Shown here piece by piece: positions 18,445 through 56,138 of a DNA stretch of 64,000 bases. The stretch spans positions 1,689,001 to 1,753,000 of the forward strand of contig OY288189.1 in the NCBI GenBank assembly GCA_958439205.1, in the 5' to 3' direction. The stretch is from an uncultured Allorhizobium sp. Its GTDB lineage: Bacteria > Pseudomonadota > Alphaproteobacteria > Rhizobiales > Rhizobiaceae. The notes under the pieces are model-generated. The model saw only the letters and a list, made by a program, of their open reading frames with translations. It did no database searches and was not told the DNA's origin. The position numbers and the translations under genes were made by a program. Each line of letters starts with the position of its first letter. Within the stretch, counting starts at the first letter, position 1.

Positions 18445-18639
18445 CCCAATCCCCCAAAATTTACCGCTATTTGTGAACGTATGGAGGAAATTGTTCAAAG
18501 AAAAGTGTCCAAGTCGGCAAAATTAACCAGGGGCGAAAAAACCTCTTGATTATGACCGACACATTTCTTATCTCGTGTTCAGCCCAAAGTCGCACGTGCC
18601 CGTGTGTGTCCGCCGACCCTCGAATGGGGATTAATCCCT

Positions 18640-19000
18640 AAGGTGAGGTCATCGGTAAGGTACCTGGAACTAACCCCTCCAGTCGCTATTCCGGCCAACC
18701 GGAAAATGCGAGGACATACGAAGCAACGACGGTGCGGGCCTTTCTAGTCTCTTCCGGCTTTCCATCAGCTGGAGTTACTTCAGAGGCACACCATCATTGC
18801 CGGAAGTGCGGTAGGGTCTCCCTCCAATCCATGGCAGACAAAGCGGATTATTGTACTCGTTTCCAGAGTGCGTTGATCCATCGTTTCGCGCGTCGAGCGT
18901 TCGTACGGTACCGGTGTCTCCACCGACTGGTTTCGAGCGATGTCTCGCCGTCCTTTGTCCATCCGAAGCTTGGCAGCTTCGGGTATCGCTGGAATTTGGA
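18640..19000 (+). promoter_or_regulatory. speF-type structured RNA leader of the decarboxylase gene
   Basis: The 567-base gap between LysR and the decarboxylase contains no plausible gene but many helices: CTGGA/TCCAG (18664-18682), TTCCGG-CCAA-CCGGAA (18689-18704), and a long-range CTTCCGGC (18751-18758) with GCCGGAAG (18799-18806). A conserved long leader called the speF element is known upstream of exactly this gene in alphaproteobacteria and is thought to respond to polyamine status. The boundaries given are approximate, and the match was not tested against a covariance model. A 29-codon reading frame at 18552-18641 just before it is noted but not supported. Confidence 0.55.
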
Positions 19001-47011: not shown

Positions 47012-47665
47012 CTAAACGGGCAACTGAAGGTATTCAACAAAATCTTCAGTAAATTCAAACCGGTCAACATTGTTATAAGTCGTCTCAAGGATCGCGCCGT
47101 AATTCTGCATTACCTTTAGCATCGGCTTCAAACTGTCGTGATCTTCGAAGAAATAACAGAAGATGGGATTTTCTGGATCGCTGTTGTAAGACCATTTCTT
47201 GGAAATAATGATGAATTCACGAATGAACGGCTCTCGAGCTATATCGTCCCGCATTTCCGCTACAAGCCTAGGCATCTTGTCTTCAAGCTTTTGAAAGCTC
47301 CGGGACACAACAATTGCAAATCCGCGAATGCCTAGATACGCGCGCATCTCAGCTAGGGTTTTCCACTCCCTAAGCTTATCAATCGAATGGCTGGAGACAT
47401 CCACGTCTACCAGCCTGCTACATGTCTGACAGAGCCAAATACCATTTTCGGCAGCGGCTCGTTCCTCGGTAGTCAAAGTAGGGTCATACCTAGGCCCACC
47501 TTCAGCGGCGGCCGTAATGTGCGCGGCAACACCAATGCTGGCGCTTTCGTCTGCGCCGTCCGGTCCAATGGTCGGACGCAAACAGGTCTGATTTGAACAA
47601 CGGTAACCTGCACGTTGCGCAATTATCCTGATTACAGAAGCTCTAAAGTCATCACGGTTGGCCAT
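47012..47665 (-). CDS. HNH-nuclease-like protein with unknown C-terminal domain
   Basis: 217 residues. The N-terminal part is a zinc-type HNH module: C23 and C28 (YRCSNQTCLRPT), H49 in VAAHITAAAEGGPRYDP, N74 in ENGIWLC, and C79/C82 in LCQTC; the last family His is replaced by Asp in RLVD. This style of HNH domain (AHI-AEGGPRYDP-TEER-NGIWLCQ-C) recurs in many uncharacterised proteins and in predicted antiphage effectors. The C-terminal half (REFIIISKKWSYNSDPE, FFEDHDSLKPMLKVMQNYGA, TYNNVDRFEF) is a compact unknown domain. The gene is visibly richer in A+T than its neighbours and stands alone, suggesting transfer. Start at MANRDDF; the longer frame adds a tail without similarity. Confidence 0.75.
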   Translation of the reverse strand: MANRDDFRASVIRIIAQRAGYRCSNQTCLRPTIGPDGADESASIGVAAHITAAAEGGPRYDPTLTTEERAAAENGIWLCQTCSRLVDVDVSSHSIDKLREWKTLAEMRAYLGIRGFAIVVSRSFQKLEDKMPRLVAEMRDDIAREPFIREFIIISKKWSYNSDPENPIFCYFFEDHDSLKPMLKVMQNYGAILETTYNNVDRFEFTEDFVEYLQLPV

Positions 47666-47976
47666 GTATAATGTATATGACGTCAACTGAGTTGAGAAAA
47701 GTGGTCGCTGAGCGCCTCGGTGGAAAGGTCCACTTCGTCCCGCATAGCTGTCGCTAGTTGACACCGCGGCGAAGGTGTACTTCCAGCCTATTGGTTAACT
47801 CGCATCACTCTGAATCGACGGCAGCTTTTGGAAAACCGTTCATAGTGAATGACGCAAATGAAGGCGCGAAGCTGCCCTTATTCCTTCGGCCCGTGATGGC
47901 CGCTACCTGCCTTCAGGATTTCGAACCTGGATGTCCGCTTCGGGCCGAATGCGGACATAAGACCGCCCTTGTTCAA
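47666..47976. other. Gene-free stretch with a symmetric hairpin
   Basis: 311 bases between the HNH and DUF2332 genes. A near-perfect inverted repeat lies at 47931-47958: ATGTCCGC-TTCGG with CCGAA-GCGGACAT. It may end the minus-strand DUF2332 gene or be a mobile palindrome. An ORF at 47758-47988 spans it and is rejected. Confidence 0.55.
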
Positions 47977-49640: not shown

Positions 49641-51599
49641 TCAAGTTTCGATCCAGAAATCGACACTGCGCGCTTTCACCGCCAGCTTGGCGGCGCTCCG
49701 GCTCGTCTCGAGGCGGCGCCATTTGCGCTTGTCGTGTGCGGGGAGCGCGAAGTCCCTCGGCTCAGGTGATCGATTGAATAGCACGGCAACGCGGCACTCC
49801 TTGCCCGTTTCGCGGTCGATGCCGGCGAGCACCATGGCAAAGGCGCCGAGATCGGGCGTTTCCCAATCGGCGACCGTCATGGGCAGACCGTCAGTGTTCA
49901 GCCAGCTGACGTCGCCGTCGCCGGTCAGGACACTGGTGTCCATGAAGCAGGAGAAGCGCTGGCGCATGGCGGCCAGACGGGCGGTCGTTGCGATCAGCTC
50001 TTCATCCGCCTTCGACCAGTCGAGCCAGGTGAGCGCATTGTCCTGGCAATAGGCATTGTTGTTGCCGCCTTGGCTGCGACCGAATTCGTCGCCTGCCGTC
50101 AGCATCACGGCACCCCGGCTGGCGAAGAGGGTCGAAAGCAGCGCTTCGACATCCTGCCTTCGCTTCTTGAGGATCGCCTTGTCAGAAGTTTCGCCCTCGA
50201 CGCCATTGTTCCAGGAATGGTTCTCGTTGTGGCCGTCGCGGTTTTCCTCGCCATTCGCCTCGTTGTGTTTGTGCGCGTAGGACACGAGGTCGTAGAGCGA
50301 GAAGCCGTCATGGGCGGCGATGAAGTTGACGCCGCGGGTCTGGCCGTGGCCGTCATGGGCGAAAAGATCGGCGGAGCCGGCGAGCGCCGTTGCAAGGTCG
50401 CCTGTCGTTCCGCCATCGCCACGCCAGTGGCGGCGGAAGGTGTCGCGGGCGCGGTCATTCCATTCAAGGAAGGCGGGTGGGAAGCGGCCGAGCTGGTATC
50501 CGCCCAGCCCGATATCCCAGGGTTCGGCAATCAGGATGCGATCTTCCAGCACCTCGTCTTCAAGGATCGCGTTCAGCGTCGGGGCATCCTGATGGAAGCC
50601 ATCCCAGTGACGGCCCATGATCGGCGCGAGGTCGAAACGGAAGCCGTCGATACCGGCCGAGAGAACGAAGTGGCGCAGCGTATCGACGATCAGCTGCCGC
50701 ACGAAGGGATGGTCGCAGGCCAGCGTGTTGCCGCAGCCGGTGTCATTGACCAGCGTGCCGGGATCATCAGCGACATGTCGGAAGAGCGAGCGGTTATCGA
50801 TGCCGCGCAGCGAAAGCGCCGTGCCGTGCACATCGCTTTCGCCGGTGTGGTTGAAGACAAGGTCGAGGATGACGCCGATGCCCTCCGCATGCAGGGCGGC
50901 GACCGTCTCGCGGAGTTCCTTGACGCCACCGGGCACGAGGCGCGGATCGAGCGCCATCATGGCCACGGGATTGTAACCCCAGCTGTTGGTGAGGCCGAGC
51001 GGCGGCAGATGCCGTTCATCGATCCAGGCGGTGATCGGCATCAGTTCGACCATGTCGACGCCGATGCGGCGCAGATGCGCGAGAATGGCGGGATGGGCGA
51101 GGGCGGAGAGCGTGCCGCGCTGTGTCTCCGGCACCTCTGGATGCAGCATGGTCAGCGCCTTGACGTTGACCTCGTAGATGAAGCCGGCGCGGTCGCCGAG
51201 CGGCATCATCGGCTTCAGCGCCTTGTGCGCCTTGAGGATCGTCTTCGGCATGAGATCCGCAGTGTCGACGCCGAACTGGCCGAGCCTGACATCGTAGACG
51301 AAGGGGCGATCGAGCTCGGTTGCATAGGGGTCGACCAGCAGCTTCGCCGGATCGTACCAGTGCCCTTGCCCAGGATCATAGGAGCCGTGGATGCGGAAGC
51401 CGTAGCGGGCGCCTTCCTTGATGCCCTCGACGAAGACATGGTGCACATCGCCTTCGCCGCGGCTCATGGAGATGCGGGCGAGTTCGGTCTCGCCCCGCTC
51501 ATCGAAGAGGCAGAGCTCCACGCGTTCGGCATGATGCGACCACAGACGGAAATCGGCACCGGTCTTGCCGATGATAGCTCCGAGCATCGCATCCGTCAT
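49641..51599 (-). CDS. glgX: Glycogen debranching enzyme (isoamylase type)
   Basis: 652 residues. An N-terminal CBM48 domain (GADFRLWSHHAERVELCLFD) precedes the GH13 barrel. Catalytic residues: Asp in GFRFDLAPIMG, Glu in LIAEPWDIG and Asp in FIAAHDGFSLYDL. The family-typical VMLTAGDEFGRSQGGNNNAY follows. GlgX removes alpha-1,6 branches left by GlgP, so it works with the glycogen genes upstream. Those are separated from it by the arsenic cassette. A hairpin at 51624-51656 lies directly before the gene. Confidence 0.95.
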   Translation of the reverse strand: MTDAMLGAIIGKTGADFRLWSHHAERVELCLFDERGETELARISMSRGEGDVHHVFVEGIKEGARYGFRIHGSYDPGQGHWYDPAKLLVDPYATELDRPFVYDVRLGQFGVDTADLMPKTILKAHKALKPMMPLGDRAGFIYEVNVKALTMLHPEVPETQRGTLSALAHPAILAHLRRIGVDMVELMPITAWIDERHLPPLGLTNSWGYNPVAMMALDPRLVPGGVKELRETVAALHAEGIGVILDLVFNHTGESDVHGTALSLRGIDNRSLFRHVADDPGTLVNDTGCGNTLACDHPFVRQLIVDTLRHFVLSAGIDGFRFDLAPIMGRHWDGFHQDAPTLNAILEDEVLEDRILIAEPWDIGLGGYQLGRFPPAFLEWNDRARDTFRRHWRGDGGTTGDLATALAGSADLFAHDGHGQTRGVNFIAAHDGFSLYDLVSYAHKHNEANGEENRDGHNENHSWNNGVEGETSDKAILKKRRQDVEALLSTLFASRGAVMLTAGDEFGRSQGGNNNAYCQDNALTWLDWSKADEELIATTARLAAMRQRFSCFMDTSVLTGDGDVSWLNTDGLPMTVADWETPDLGAFAMVLAGIDRETGKECRVAVLFNRSPEPRDFALPAHDKRKWRRLETSRSAAKLAVKARSVDFWIET

Positions 51600-51623
51600 G
51601 TCTCGCCTCGTGGTCGGGTTGAT

Positions 51624-51656
51624 TCGCTCGCCTGATGGAACAATAGCAGGCGAGCG
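51624..51656 (-). other. Perfect hairpin between arsH and glgX
   Basis: TCGCTCGCCTG at 51624-51634 mirrors CAGGCGAGCGA at 51646-51656, an eleven-pair stem with an 11-base loop. Without a T run on the minus strand it is more likely an mRNA-end or attenuating structure than a simple terminator. Confidence 0.6.
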
Positions 51657-51679
51657 ATCTTCGGCCAGAGCGGTTGCGC

Positions 51680-52390
51680 TTACATGGCCTTGAGGTTCAC
51701 CGCTTTCACCGCCTCTTCCTTGCGCTCGCTGTAGCGATCGGTGAGGTAGTCCGAGACGTCGCGGGTAAGAAGCGTGAACTTCACCAGTTCTTCGCAGACA
51801 TCGACGACGCGCTCGTAATAGGAGGATGGCTTCATCCGGCCTTCGCCGTCGAATTCCTGGTATGCCTTGGCCACGGACGACTGGTTGGGGATGGTGATCA
51901 TCCGCATCCAGCGGCCGAGCAGGCGCATGGCGTTGACGGCGTTGAACGACTGCGACCCGCCGGAGACCTGCATGACGGCGAGCGTCTTTCCCTGGGTCGG
52001 GCGCACCGCGCCGACGGACAAGGGGATCCAGTCGATCTGCGCCTTCATGATGCCGGTCAGCGTGCCGTGGCGCTCAGGGCTCACCCAGACCTGGCCCTCG
52101 GACCATTGGGACAGGTCGCGCAGTTCCTGCACCTTGGGATGGCTCACCGGTGCATCGTCGGGCAGCGGCAGGCCTGAAGGGTCGAAAACCCTAACCTCGG
52201 CGCCGAAATGCTCGAGCAGGCGTTTGGTTTCCATTGCCAGAAGGCGGCTGAAGGACACCTGACGCAGCGAGCCATAGAGGATCAGGATGCGCGGCTTGTG
52301 GGTCGAGAAGGGGCGGCGAAGCGCCTGCAGATCCGGCATGCGCAGGTGGTCGAGATCGGCGGCGGGCAGGTCTATTTTCACATCAGACAA
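51680..52390 (-). CDS. arsH: ArsH NADPH-dependent FMN reductase
   Basis: About 236 residues. The flavodoxin-like fold has [21 protein letters not shown] (FMN phosphate loop), [20 protein letters not shown] and [25 protein letters not shown], all diagnostic for ArsH. ArsH oxidises trivalent organoarsenicals, giving resistance. A TTG at 52390 is chosen because GGAGG lies nine bases upstream; GTG 52381 is the alternative. The TTG start overlaps the arsC stop by eight bases. Last gene of the ars operon. Confidence 0.9.
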
Positions 52391-52814
52391 TGCGCTTGCC
52401 CTCCGCATCGAGCACGGCTTCGCCGTCTTCCTTGACGAAGGCGGAGGTGAAGGCGTCGGCGGGGAGGATGTCGAGCACCACTTCGGACGGGCGGCAGAGG
52501 CGCGTGCCCATCTCGGTGACAACAAGTGGACGGTTGATCAGGATGGGGTGGGTGATCATGGCATCCAGCAGCAAAGTGTCGGTCAGGGCAGGGTCGGCCA
52601 GGCCGAGTTCCTCATAGGGCGTGCCCTTTTCGCGGATCGCCTCGCGTACCGAGAGGCCGGAGTCGGCGATCATCTTGGCAAGCTGCCCCTTGCTCGGCGG
52701 GGTCTTCAGATATTCGATGACCGTGGGCTCGATGCCGGCATGGCGGATGAGGTCGAGCGTGTTGCGCGAGGTGCCGCAGGCCGGGTTGTGGTAGATGGTG
52801 ACGGTCATGGTCAT
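52383..52814 (-). CDS. arsC: Arsenate reductase, glutaredoxin-dependent type
   Basis: 143 residues. The catalytic Cys lies in [13 protein letters not shown] near residue 13, and the family blocks [30 protein letters not shown] (shown in part) and [10 protein letters not shown] follow. This is the thioredoxin-fold ArsC that uses glutathione/glutaredoxin to reduce arsenate to arsenite. Its start overlaps the aqpS stop by one base. A second, unrelated arsenate reductase lies upstream in the same operon. Confidence 0.95.
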
Positions 52815-53506
52815 CAGGCTCCTTGAGAATTTGTCTTTTGGGTCGCGCGGCGCTCATCGGCAAACAGCCAGGCGGCGAGCATGGACGCCAGCACTGCGCC
52901 GACGATCTGCGCGATGATGAAGCCCGGCAGGTCGAGGGGACGAATGCCGGCAAACGTGTTGGTCAGGCTGCGGGCAATCGCCACGGCTGGATTGGCGAAG
53001 GAGGTCGAGGCGGTGAACCAGTAGGCGGCCGTAATGTAGAGGCCGACCAGCATCGGGATTGCGTCCGCCTTGAAGCGCAGGCCGCCGAGAATGGTCAGGA
53101 GCAGGCCGAAGGTTGCTACCGCTTCGGCCGTCCACTGGGCCGAGCCTGATCGAACGGTCTCCGAGACCTGGAAGATCGGTAGCTCGAACATCGCATGGGC
53201 AATCAGCGTCCCGGCGATGCCGCCAAGGATCTGGGCAAGCACGTATGGCAGGATGGCGGAGGCCTCCAACTCCTTGCGGAGAGCGAAGACCATCGTCACG
53301 ACCGGGTTGAAATTGGCACCGGAGATCGGCCCCAGGATGGTGATCAGCACGAAGAGGATGGCGCCTGTCGGGATGGTGTTGCCGAGCAGAGAGACGGCGA
53401 CATCGTCGGAAAGGCGGTCCGCCATGATGCCGGAACCGACAACGGTTGCGACCAGCATGGCGGTGCCAAGCGCCTCGGCTGCGAGGCGGCGAGAAAGATC
53501 GACCAT
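52814..53506 (-). CDS. aqpS: Aquaglyceroporin for arsenite (AqpS type)
   Basis: 230 residues of the MIP family. The two pore motifs are NPV in GANFNPVVTMVF and NPA in FANPAVAIARS, with six membrane helices. The first motif has Val instead of Ala, as in MIP channels of ars operons. In Sinorhizobium AqpS lets arsenite leave the cell down its gradient after ArsC makes it. There is no ArsB or Acr3 pump here, so this channel is the only visible exit. It starts five bases after the LMW reductase gene stop. Confidence 0.93.
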   Translation of the reverse strand: MVDLSRRLAAEALGTAMLVATVVGSGIMADRLSDDVAVSLLGNTIPTGAILFVLITILGPISGANFNPVVTMVFALRKELEASAILPYVLAQILGGIAGTLIAHAMFELPIFQVSETVRSGSAQWTAEAVATFGLLLTILGGLRFKADAIPMLVGLYITAAYWFTASTSFANPAVAIARSLTNTFAGIRPLDLPGFIIAQIVGAVLASMLAAWLFADERRATQKTNSQGA

Positions 53507-53511
53507 GGTCT

Positions 53512-54021
53512 TCAGCCGACCGTCTGTGTGCTGCTGCCGATTTCGTTCAGCCGCTTCTGCAGCGAGAGCTTGTCGAGGCTCGCCATCGGCAGGCTGACGA
53601 AGATCGAGATGCGGTGATTGAGCATTCGATAAGCCTCAGCGAATGCGAAATGCTTCTCGCTATCCGTACCCTCTGCAGCGGCCGGATCCGGCACGCCCCA
53701 ATGGGCGGTCATCGGCTGGCCCGGCCAGACCGGGCAGGCCTCGGCGGCGGCGTTGTCGCAGACGGTGAAGACGAAATCGAGCTCGGGCGCGCCGGGGACA
53801 GCGAACTCGTCCCAGTTCTTCGAGCGGGCGAAGCTCGTGTCGTAGTTCACGCCCTTCAGGAGCTGCAGCGTGTAGGGGTGGACTTCGCCCTTCGGCTGAG
53901 AGCCTGCGGAATAGGCCTTGAACTTGCCCTGGCCGAGACGGTTCAGGAGCGCTTCCGCGATGATCGAGCGGGCGGAATTGCCGGTGCAGAGGAAGAGCAC
54001 GTTGTAGATCTTGTCGGACAT
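53512..54021 (-). CDS. Low-molecular-weight phosphatase-type arsenate reductase
   Basis: 169 residues. The phosphatase loop LFLCTGNSARSIIAEALLN has the CX5R core and the Asn-Ser typical of ArsC rather than of tyrosine phosphatases. The end extends past the usual 135-140 residues by about 25 (SLDKLSLQKRLNEIG). The fold is unrelated to the glutaredoxin-type ArsC downstream, so the operon has two kinds of arsenate reductase. It begins ten bases after the arsR stop. Confidence 0.88.
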   Translation of the reverse strand: MSDKIYNVLFLCTGNSARSIIAEALLNRLGQGKFKAYSAGSQPKGEVHPYTLQLLKGVNYDTSFARSKNWDEFAVPGAPELDFVFTVCDNAAAEACPVWPGQPMTAHWGVPDPAAAEGTDSEKHFAFAEAYRMLNHRISIFVSLPMASLDKLSLQKRLNEIGSSTQTVG

Positions 54022-54031
54022 GGCCGGTCTC

Positions 54032-54391
54032 TCAGTTGGGGCGGGTGACTTCGAGGGTGGGGGAACAGCAGGCGAGATCGTCGATCAGCGGCTGGCAGAG
54101 GCTGGCATTGCCGCCGCAGCAATCTTTGAGCAGGTACAGGGCAACGGCGCGGAAGCGATCGAGATCGGCGCGGTAGATGATCGAGCGGCTCTGGCGTTCG
54201 CCGGTGACCAGGCCGGCCTGCGAGAGCGTCGACAGATGCGCCGACATGGTGTTCTGCGGCACGCCGATCAGGCGGGCGAGCTCGCCGGCGGGAACGCCAT
54301 CGGGTTCATGCGCCACAAGCAGGCGAAATGTCTGCAGGCGGGTCGGTTGGGCCAGAGCGGCAAGCGCCGCGATCGTCGATTTTTCATCCAT
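54032..54391 (-). CDS. arsR: ArsR-family repressor
   Basis: 119 residues of winged-helix type. The HTH is GELARLIGVPQNTMSAHLSTLSQ with wing GERQSRSIIYR. Cys residues 91, 92 and 99 (KDCCGGNASLC) plus 108 and 109 lie at the C-terminus, an arrangement like the arsenite site of the Acidithiobacillus-type ArsR rather than the CVC site of the plasmid repressor. First gene of the operon. The promoter (see next entry) leaves no room for a 5' leader. Confidence 0.93.
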   Translation of the reverse strand: MDEKSTIAALAALAQPTRLQTFRLLVAHEPDGVPAGELARLIGVPQNTMSAHLSTLSQAGLVTGERQSRSIIYRADLDRFRAVALYLLKDCCGGNASLCQPLIDDLACCSPTLEVTRPN

Positions 54392-54393
54392 AA

Positions 54394-54425
54394 ATCCAGA
54401 ATAGTGGATATAATGGCGGAGTCAA
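54394..54425 (-). promoter_or_regulatory. ars promoter with overlapping palindromic operator
   Basis: On the minus strand, TTGACT (-35, at 54425-54420), a 16-base spacer and TATTCT (-10, at 54403-54398) point to a start at about 54391, which is the A of the arsR ATG. The palindrome ATCCA-GAATAG-TGGAT at 54394-54409 covers the -10, as expected for a repressor site. Confidence 0.6.
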
Positions 54426-54446: not shown

Positions 54447-54478
54447 AGAAAAACCCCGGTGTCGAAGACGCCGGGGTT
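54447..54478 (-). terminator. Terminator of the glycogen operon
   Basis: AACCCCGGTGTC and GACGCCGGGGTT form a long stem with a GAA loop. On the minus strand it is followed by TTTTTCTTT, so it ends transcription after pgm, before the ars promoter. Confidence 0.9.

Positions 54479-54506: not shown

Positions 54507-56138
<1,632 letters not shown>

What the first reader, a model, noticed from the sequence alone, without database searches (positions are those of the whole stretch)
51680..54425. Complete arsenic cassette placed between pgm and glgX
In many rhizobia glgX follows glgPBCA-pgm in the same direction. Here pgm ends at 54507 with its own terminator (54447-54478), then five ars genes with their own promoter follow in the same direction, and glgX comes after arsH with an 80-base gap. 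The sequence shows the order; that it is an insertion into a former operon is inference. One effect would be that glgX is read from the ars promoter unless it has its own.
Basis: partly seen in the sequence, partly recalled or inferred. Interest (0 to 1): 0.7.

Follow-up and report, generated by a model that had tools for sequence, protein, structure and literature searches.

The report
Arsenic operon inside the glycogen locus
In 23 of 63 genomes of one group of rhizobium-like bacteria an arsenic-resistance operon sits directly before the glycogen gene glgX, where the other 40 have none, and its predicted arsenite-exit gene is a channel in 18 and an unrelated pump in 5, so the site was likely filled once and the exit gene likely exchanged later.

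Summary
On the minus strand, pgm is followed by a strong intrinsic terminator, then arsR, an LMW-phosphatase-type arsC, aqpS, a glutaredoxin-type arsC, arsH, an 80-nt gap and glgX. Comparison with 63 same-genus genomes (the window's included) supports insertion. In 22 the ars operon lies between pgm and glgX on one contig, and these form one clade on the glgX tree. A 23rd, on split contigs, shows arsH-glgX. In the other 40, glgX follows pgm with no ars gene between. The cassette is of a known kind (about 75% identical to cassettes on Sinorhizobium megaplasmids), and its ArsH lineage differs from that of the sister species, so it was likely acquired once. First, glgX has a predicted promoter of its own (CTGG[CT]C-17-TATTGT in 18 of 22, TGCTA in 22 of 22), so dependence on the ars promoter is unlikely, though no terminator was found to block read-through. 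Second, the exit gene is interchangeable at this site: aqpS in 18, acr3 in 5, never both, with no second copy of either found in those genomes. Nothing was tested at the bench. Verdict: a well-supported insertion of a known kind of operon; the exchangeable exit gene is the interesting part.

The parts
54507..56135 (-). pgm, phosphoglucomutase; upstream neighbour
   Evidence: NF005737, 981 bits
54447..54478 (-). intrinsic terminator after pgm
   Evidence: fold -19.7 kcal/mol, z -5.3; hairpin and T-run by eye in 19 of 19 aligned genomes
54398..54425 (-). predicted ars promoter TTGACT-16-TATTCT; predicted start site is the A of the arsR ATG (leaderless mRNA, predicted)
   Evidence: scan; TTGACT-16-TATTCT in 21 of 22 site genomes, and TATTCTGGAT[AT]TATGG in 7 of 28 cassette loci outside the genus
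54392..54411 (.). predicted ArsR operator, palindrome ATATCCA-N6-TGGATAT (one mismatch here) lying over the -10 box
   Evidence: only match in 64 kb with up to 2 mismatches, 0.08 expected, 8 of 100 shuffles have one; exact in 15 of 22 site genomes
54032..54391 (-). arsR, predicted repressor; C-terminal CC-x6-C cysteines
   Evidence: NF033788 over cut-off; cysteines in 22 of 22
53512..54021 (-). arsC, LMW-phosphatase-type, predicted arsenate reductase
   Evidence: PF01451; PDB 1jl3 'arsenate reductase' E 8e-18, while the best PDB hit 8p5n is named only LMW phosphatase family; under NCBIfam cut-offs
52814..53506 (-). aqpS, MIP channel, predicted arsenite exit
   Evidence: PF00230; only homologue at E 1e-20 in the genome; S. 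meliloti record names the matching gene aqpS
52383..52814 (-). arsC, glutaredoxin-type arsenate reductase
   Evidence: TIGR00014 over cut-off
51680..52390 (-). arsH
   Evidence: TIGR02690 over cut-off; PDB 2q62 'arsH' E 5e-124
51640..51668 (-). predicted glgX promoter: CTGGCC-17-TATTGT with TGC before the -10
   Evidence: CTGG[CT]C-17-TATTGT in 18 of 22, absent in G416, G404, G419, G396; TGCTA 48-51 nt before the glgX ATG in 22 of 22, 10-column identity 0.95 against 0.66 at glgX third codon positions in 171 same-length pairs
49641..51599 (-). glgX, glycogen debranching enzyme; downstream neighbour
   Evidence: TIGR02100, 805 bits

Best explanation
A five-gene arsenic operon lies between pgm and glgX in this genome and its counterparts in one clade of its genus, where it likely arrived once as a ready-made cassette with its own predicted ArsR-controlled promoter, and its predicted arsenite-exit gene has since likely been exchanged in place between a channel (aqpS) and a pump (acr3). 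Predicted working: the terminator ends the glg-pgm transcript; ArsR sits on a palindrome over the -10 box of its own leaderless promoter and would leave it when trivalent arsenic binds its cysteines; the two ArsC enzymes would reduce arsenate to arsenite; AqpS would let arsenite out down its gradient; ArsH would oxidise trivalent organoarsenicals. glgX would be transcribed mainly from its own conserved promoter, with possible read-through from ars when arsenic is present. Shown by sequence: gene order, clade-wide presence, absence in relatives, the hairpin, the conserved elements, and that no genome was found with both aqpS and acr3 at the site. Inferred: single acquisition, exchange by homologous recombination through shared neighbouring genes, and all functions and regulation.
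For: Presence: 23 of 63 same-genus genomes have arsH directly before glgX, 22 of them with pgm-ars-glgX on one contig; the other 40 have pgm then glgX without ars. Clade: glgB+C+A protein tree, 22 ars rows (G429 in, G431 missing) one clade (SH-aLRT 100), sister G427/G436/G439 (99); glgX tree, the 22 one-contig genomes one clade (99). One cassette lineage: all 23 site ArsH proteins form one clade (100/98), with aqpS-type cassettes as neighbours, while G427, G439 and G415 have ArsH of another lineage in an acr3 cassette elsewhere (G427's contig has the length of Rhizobium sp. SL42 plasmid NZ_CP063398). The cassette's promoter layout occurs elsewhere: TATTCTGGAT[AT]TATGG in 7 of 28 cassette loci outside the genus. 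Exchange: aqpS in 18 and acr3 in 5 of 23; no second AqpS homologue (E 1e-20), no second Acr3 over the cut-off and no ArsB match (E 1e-20) in the 23; fewest 4 changes of exit gene on the glgBCA DNA tree of 21 ars rows; the switch lies between the 3' end of the LMW arsC and the start of the second arsC. Cassette distances follow glgBCA distances weakly (r 0.17 arsC, 0.27 arsH, 0.29 arsR, 0.40 LMW arsC, 0.40 acr3 on 10 pairs, 0.42 aqpS) against 0.52 maoC and 0.57 pgm and glgX. glgX promoter.
Against: No expression or resistance data. Single-gene trees of the ars genes are short and weakly supported, and most trees here are quick searches. Of five glgBCA groups tested on arsC+arsH, AU rejected one (G435, G437, G410, p 0.001); the others were not rejected (p 0.107, 0.143, 0.397, 0.068). 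The five acr3 rows as a clade were rejected at p 0.027, not corrected for six tests. The direction of the aqpS/acr3 change is not rooted inside the clade. The nearest ars-free relative differs by gene: G427 group on glgBCA, G401 on pgm and glgX. Eight of the 18 aqpS genomes have a weak match to the Acr3 profile far under the cut-off (28-40 bits against 283), and three of the 23 genomes are under 90% complete, so a missed second copy is possible. Other arsenic exporters were not searched. No mobile element, tRNA or clear flanking direct repeat marks the insertion.
Confidence: 0.76

Rival explanations
1. glgX has become part of the arsenic regulon: it is read mainly from the ars promoter and the pairing is selected, for example because arsenate enters glycogen phosphorolysis (arsenolysis, recalled chemistry) and glycogen turnover must change under arsenic.
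For: Same direction, 79-82 nt arsH-glgX gap in 20 of 22 genomes, no terminator-like site between them in the window, order kept in the 22 genomes read through.
Against: Conserved promoter-like element just before glgX; in the G427 group glgX lies behind antisense frames and would have to be read independently; the junction holds other DNA of more than 500 nt in 11 of 72 other loci, with unrelated families where examined.
Confidence: 0.15
2. The operon at this site is ancestral to the genus and was lost many times.
For: Losses are easy, and ars-related DNA is common in the family (345 of 394 genomes match part of the cassette at E 0.001).
Against: 40 of 63 genus genomes and 72 of 72 other loci lack it, the two sets overlapping in at least five genomes; the ars rows form one inner clade; ArsH of the nearest ars-free relatives belongs to other lineages.
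Confidence: 0.06
3. The aqpS and acr3 versions are two old alleles that were sorted among the species, or whole cassettes were replaced, rather than the exit gene alone being exchanged.
For: The acr3 copies differ by 6-14% in DNA, about as much as the rest of the cassette, while their proteins are nearly identical and of one lineage; three of the five acr3 genomes (G395, G419, G411) share changes in the arsR promoter region.
Against: arsC+arsH do not group the acr3 rows (3 changes; AU p 0.027); the sequence switch sits at gene borders.
Confidence: 0.3

Closest known systems
Sinorhizobium meliloti ars operon with aquaglyceroporin AqpS (Yang et al. 2005, known here only through passages of PMC6205960, and a record annotation)
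   Same: arsR, aqpS in the place of an efflux pump, arsC, arsH
   Different: Here an extra LMW-phosphatase-type arsC, and a place between pgm and glgX
Cassettes on Sinorhizobium megaplasmids (S. fredii, Sinorhizobium sp. RAC02, S. sojae)
   Same: 75-76% identical over 93% of the query in one piece; the S. sojae stretch shows arsR-arsC-aqpS-arsC-arsH and the same leaderless promoter layout (L090)
   Different: Plasmid-borne; no glg gene in the stretch held for S. sojae (L090)
   Same: Same frame with Acr3 in the exit slot
   Different: Separate ArsH and Acr3 lineages, another location
Mosaic operons / gene displacement in situ (concept recalled; papers seen in search listing only)
   Same: One gene of an operon replaced by an unrelated gene of like role while the neighbours stay
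   Different: Here apparently repeated at one chromosomal site inside one clade

Membership tests
S. meliloti-type (AqpS) ars operon | MIP channel inside an ars operon, no second transporter in it | tested here: met
   PF00230 protein between two arsC genes; no Acr3 over the cut-off and no ArsB match at E 1e-20 in the genome; literature: all 18 operon-borne MIPs of one survey stand alone (passage of PMC4435449)
S. meliloti-type (AqpS) ars operon | arsR, arsC and arsH present with it | tested here: met
S. meliloti-type (AqpS) ars operon | ArsR-controlled promoter | tested here: inconclusive
   conserved promoter and palindrome; binding not testable here
S. meliloti-type (AqpS) ars operon | channel passes arsenite; raises resistance to arsenate | not testable with these tools
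   needs transport or growth assays
Transposon- or island-borne ars cassette | transposase, integrase, tRNA end or flanking direct repeats | tested here: not met
   no such gene among the genes between pgm and glgX, no tRNA in the window, no clear direct repeat shared by the two borders; one 14-nt near-repeat at 51660 and 54347 is of the short two-copy kind that the tool calls often chance
Gene displacement in situ | shared neighbours, one slot occupied by unrelated genes | tested here: met
   aqpS or acr3 between LMW arsC and arsC, fewest 4 changes on the glgBCA tree
Gene displacement in situ | exchange by recombination through the flanks | tested here: inconclusive
   weak distance correlation and partial AU rejection

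The most novel reading that the evidence does not exclude
The pgm-glgX junction is an exchange socket for arsenite-exit genes: species of this clade trade a passive channel for a driven pump at one chromosomal address by recombination through the shared arsC genes, switching in one step between tolerance of arsenate only and tolerance of outside arsenite as well.
Probability: 0.35. Interest if true: 0.6.

Novelty: new member of a known kind. Interest (0 to 1): 0.42.

Why it matters
In S. meliloti an AqpS-type operon is reported to give resistance to arsenite made inside from arsenate but sensitivity to outside arsenite (passage of PMC6205960), whereas a pump is expected to protect against both. 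A clade in which close relatives carry one or the other at the same address, with no other AqpS, Acr3 or ArsB found in their genomes, would make that difference directly testable in matched strains. It also shows a metal-resistance operon kept through a clade inside a central carbon-storage locus.

Tried and rejected
Considered and rejected: (1) pgm and ars arriving together. pgm of this clade is closer to the Neorhizobium/Agrobacterium type than to Ciceribacter while glgA is the other way round, but G401 shares that pgm and lacks ars at the site, so the odd pgm is more likely older than the cassette. (2) Base composition as a sign of foreign origin: the cassette is 61-65% GC like its flanks. 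(3) An inverted repeat around the glgX -10 in the window is not kept across the clade (by eye). (4) Mobile-element borders: none found. Literature: five searches for a glg-ars link or for aqpS beside acr3 found 213, 409, 23, 17 and 26 papers, of which 15, 15, 15, 12 and 10 were listed. None of the listed titles or abstract starts is about either. I did not see the unlisted ones, and most subscription papers are not in that library.

Full report
WHAT IS THERE. On the minus strand the window reads glgP, glgB, glgC, glgA, pgm (54507-56135), terminator (54447-54478), arsR, an LMW-phosphatase-type arsC, aqpS, a glutaredoxin-type arsC, arsH, an 80-nt gap, glgX (49641-51599), then a MaoC-like gene. 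The genes from pgm to the MaoC-like gene were assigned with Pfam and NCBIfam; glgP, glgB, glgC and glgA are named from the finding and their place and were not scanned. The terminator folds at -19.7 kcal/mol, z -5.3.

WHERE RELATIVES STAND. A named scan gave 80 pgm loci, the best of 588 relatives found. The first three (Rhizobium sp. RU33A, Rhizobium sp. TH135, a metagenome-assembled Rhizobium) have the same five-gene insert. Of the other 77, 72 show glgX after pgm within the stretch held, and 0 of 72 have ars genes between; 11 of the 72 have more than 500 nt of other DNA there. In the window's genus, 63 of 63 genomes searched have pgm and glgX. I fetched the junction for 55 other genomes (56 regions); for the remaining seven (G398, G440, G444, G445, G446, G447, G449) the coordinates leave 28-30 nt. 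In 22 of 63 (the window included) ars genes lie between pgm and glgX on one contig. In G429 the contigs break, but aqpS-arsC-arsH-glgX is contiguous, giving 23 of 63. The other 40 have no ars gene at the junction: 30 have a gap of about 10-44 nt, four of 59-171 nt (G289, G403, G401, G434), and six of 1.36-2.44 kb (G427, G436, G439, G415, G428, G330). Five of those six hold antisense frames that cluster with a TetR or an AHSA1-type protein (Pfam run on G428 and G330 only); G436's gap of the same length was not assigned.

HISTORY. On glgB+C+A proteins 22 ars genomes (G431 missing, G429 in) form one clade with the G427 group as sister and G401 outside (65 rows, quick method). On glgX the 22 one-contig genomes form one clade with G401 as sister (66 rows, quick). 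pgm tells another story: the clade and G401 sit with Neorhizobium/Agrobacterium-type genes, away from the G427 group and Ciceribacter, so pgm was probably replaced before ars came. The 23 ArsH proteins of the site form one clade (100/98); its nearest neighbours are ArsH proteins of cassettes that carry aqpS, at moderate support (91/88), whereas G427, G439 and G415 have ArsH of another lineage in an acr3 cassette elsewhere, and G401 and G436 yet another (64 rows in the tree). The full ArsH of each of the 23 ars genomes is the one beside glgX; other listed hits in these genomes are 23-31% identical. The closest cassettes outside the genus are about 75-77% identical, on Sinorhizobium megaplasmids among others.

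CONTROL ELEMENTS. In the 19 genomes with a 112-117 nt pgm-arsR gap, a terminator hairpin is kept; three of 22 (G402, G404, G432), with 1.2-1.4 kb there, were left out of that alignment. TTGACT-16-TATTCT stands before arsR in 21 of 22 (not G432), and the exact palindrome ATATCCA-N6-TGGATAT over the -10 box in 15 of 22; the window has one mismatch, and G395, G419, G411, G402, G404 and G432 differ. The A of the arsR ATG is 7 nt after the -10 in the window, so a leaderless mRNA is predicted. Leaderless mRNAs starting with AUG are known in S. meliloti: 171 mapped (passage of PMC3616915; arsR is not named in that text). The palindrome with up to 2 mismatches matches once in 64 kb, 0.08 expected, 8 of 100 shuffles having one. 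TATTCTGGAT[AT]TATGG occurs in 7 of 28 cassette loci outside the genus; others have different ArsR upstream regions. Before glgX, TGCTA is found 48-51 nt upstream of the ATG in 22 of 22, and CTGG[CT]C-17-TATTGT in 18 of 22, missing in G416, G404, G419 and G396. The spacer is the least conserved part of the gap (0.52 identity, against 0.95 at the -10, and 0.66 at glgX third positions). I read this as a promoter of glgX itself; it is a prediction. GAATCA between it and the start codon is also kept in 22 of 22 and is unexplained. No terminator-like site was found between arsH and glgX in the window.

THE EXIT GENE. In 18 of the 23 the gene before the second arsC is aqpS; in 5 (G395, G419, G411, G396, G404) it is acr3. 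No ars genome has a second AqpS homologue (E 1e-20) or a second Acr3 over the cut-off, and none has an ArsB match at E 1e-20; eight of the 18 have a weak Acr3-profile match of 28-40 bits, far under the cut-off of 283. On the glgBCA DNA tree of 21 ars rows the fewest changes of exit gene are 4. The five Acr3 proteins are one nearly identical lineage; of eleven other genus Acr3 proteins compared, nine are 69-73% identical and two about 31%. The switch lies between the last codons of the LMW arsC and the start of the second arsC (five acr3 and six aqpS genomes compared). Three genomes lack the LMW arsC (G402, G417, G416). Cassette distances follow the glgBCA distances poorly. Formal tests are mixed: one of five glgBCA groups is rejected on arsC+arsH, and the acr3 rows as one clade are rejected at p 0.027. 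Exchange inside the clade is therefore likely but not proven, and its direction is not settled; aqpS as the first state is favoured because the nearest cassettes elsewhere have aqpS.

JUDGEMENT. The glgX consequence is less likely than suggested. The cassette is of a known kind. Its exact place and the exchange of the exit gene at a fixed address were not met in the listed papers of five searches, whose lists were capped.

Noticed in passing
47012-47764: Low-GC gene (46-54% in its 500-nt windows) resembling PADLOC candidate PDC-M68A (E 3e-23) and HNH-type effectors, without a Pfam match; no relative in the stretches held for the 80 named pgm loci.
   Followed up: partly
54507-56135: pgm of this clade and G401 groups with Neorhizobium/Agrobacterium-type pgm, against the glgBCA and glgX trees: a likely older gene replacement.
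   Followed up: partly
L193 and L201 (after pgm), L210: A two-gene module of unknown family (198 and 178 aa) sits after pgm in G404, with relatives of both genes in G439 and of the second alone in G432; no Pfam match.
   Followed up: partly
51600-51640: GAATCA between the predicted glgX promoter and the glgX start is kept in 22 of 22 site genomes; unexplained.
   Followed up: no
G000:C1:1207354-1209276: A second GlgX-like protein (42% identical) is encoded elsewhere in the genome and in many same-genus genomes; it could buffer changes in glgX.
   Followed up: no
18582-18911: ar45 sRNA directly followed by a speF leader.
   Followed up: no
G428:C3:182803-183489: AqpS homologue read with one internal TAG.
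   Followed up: no
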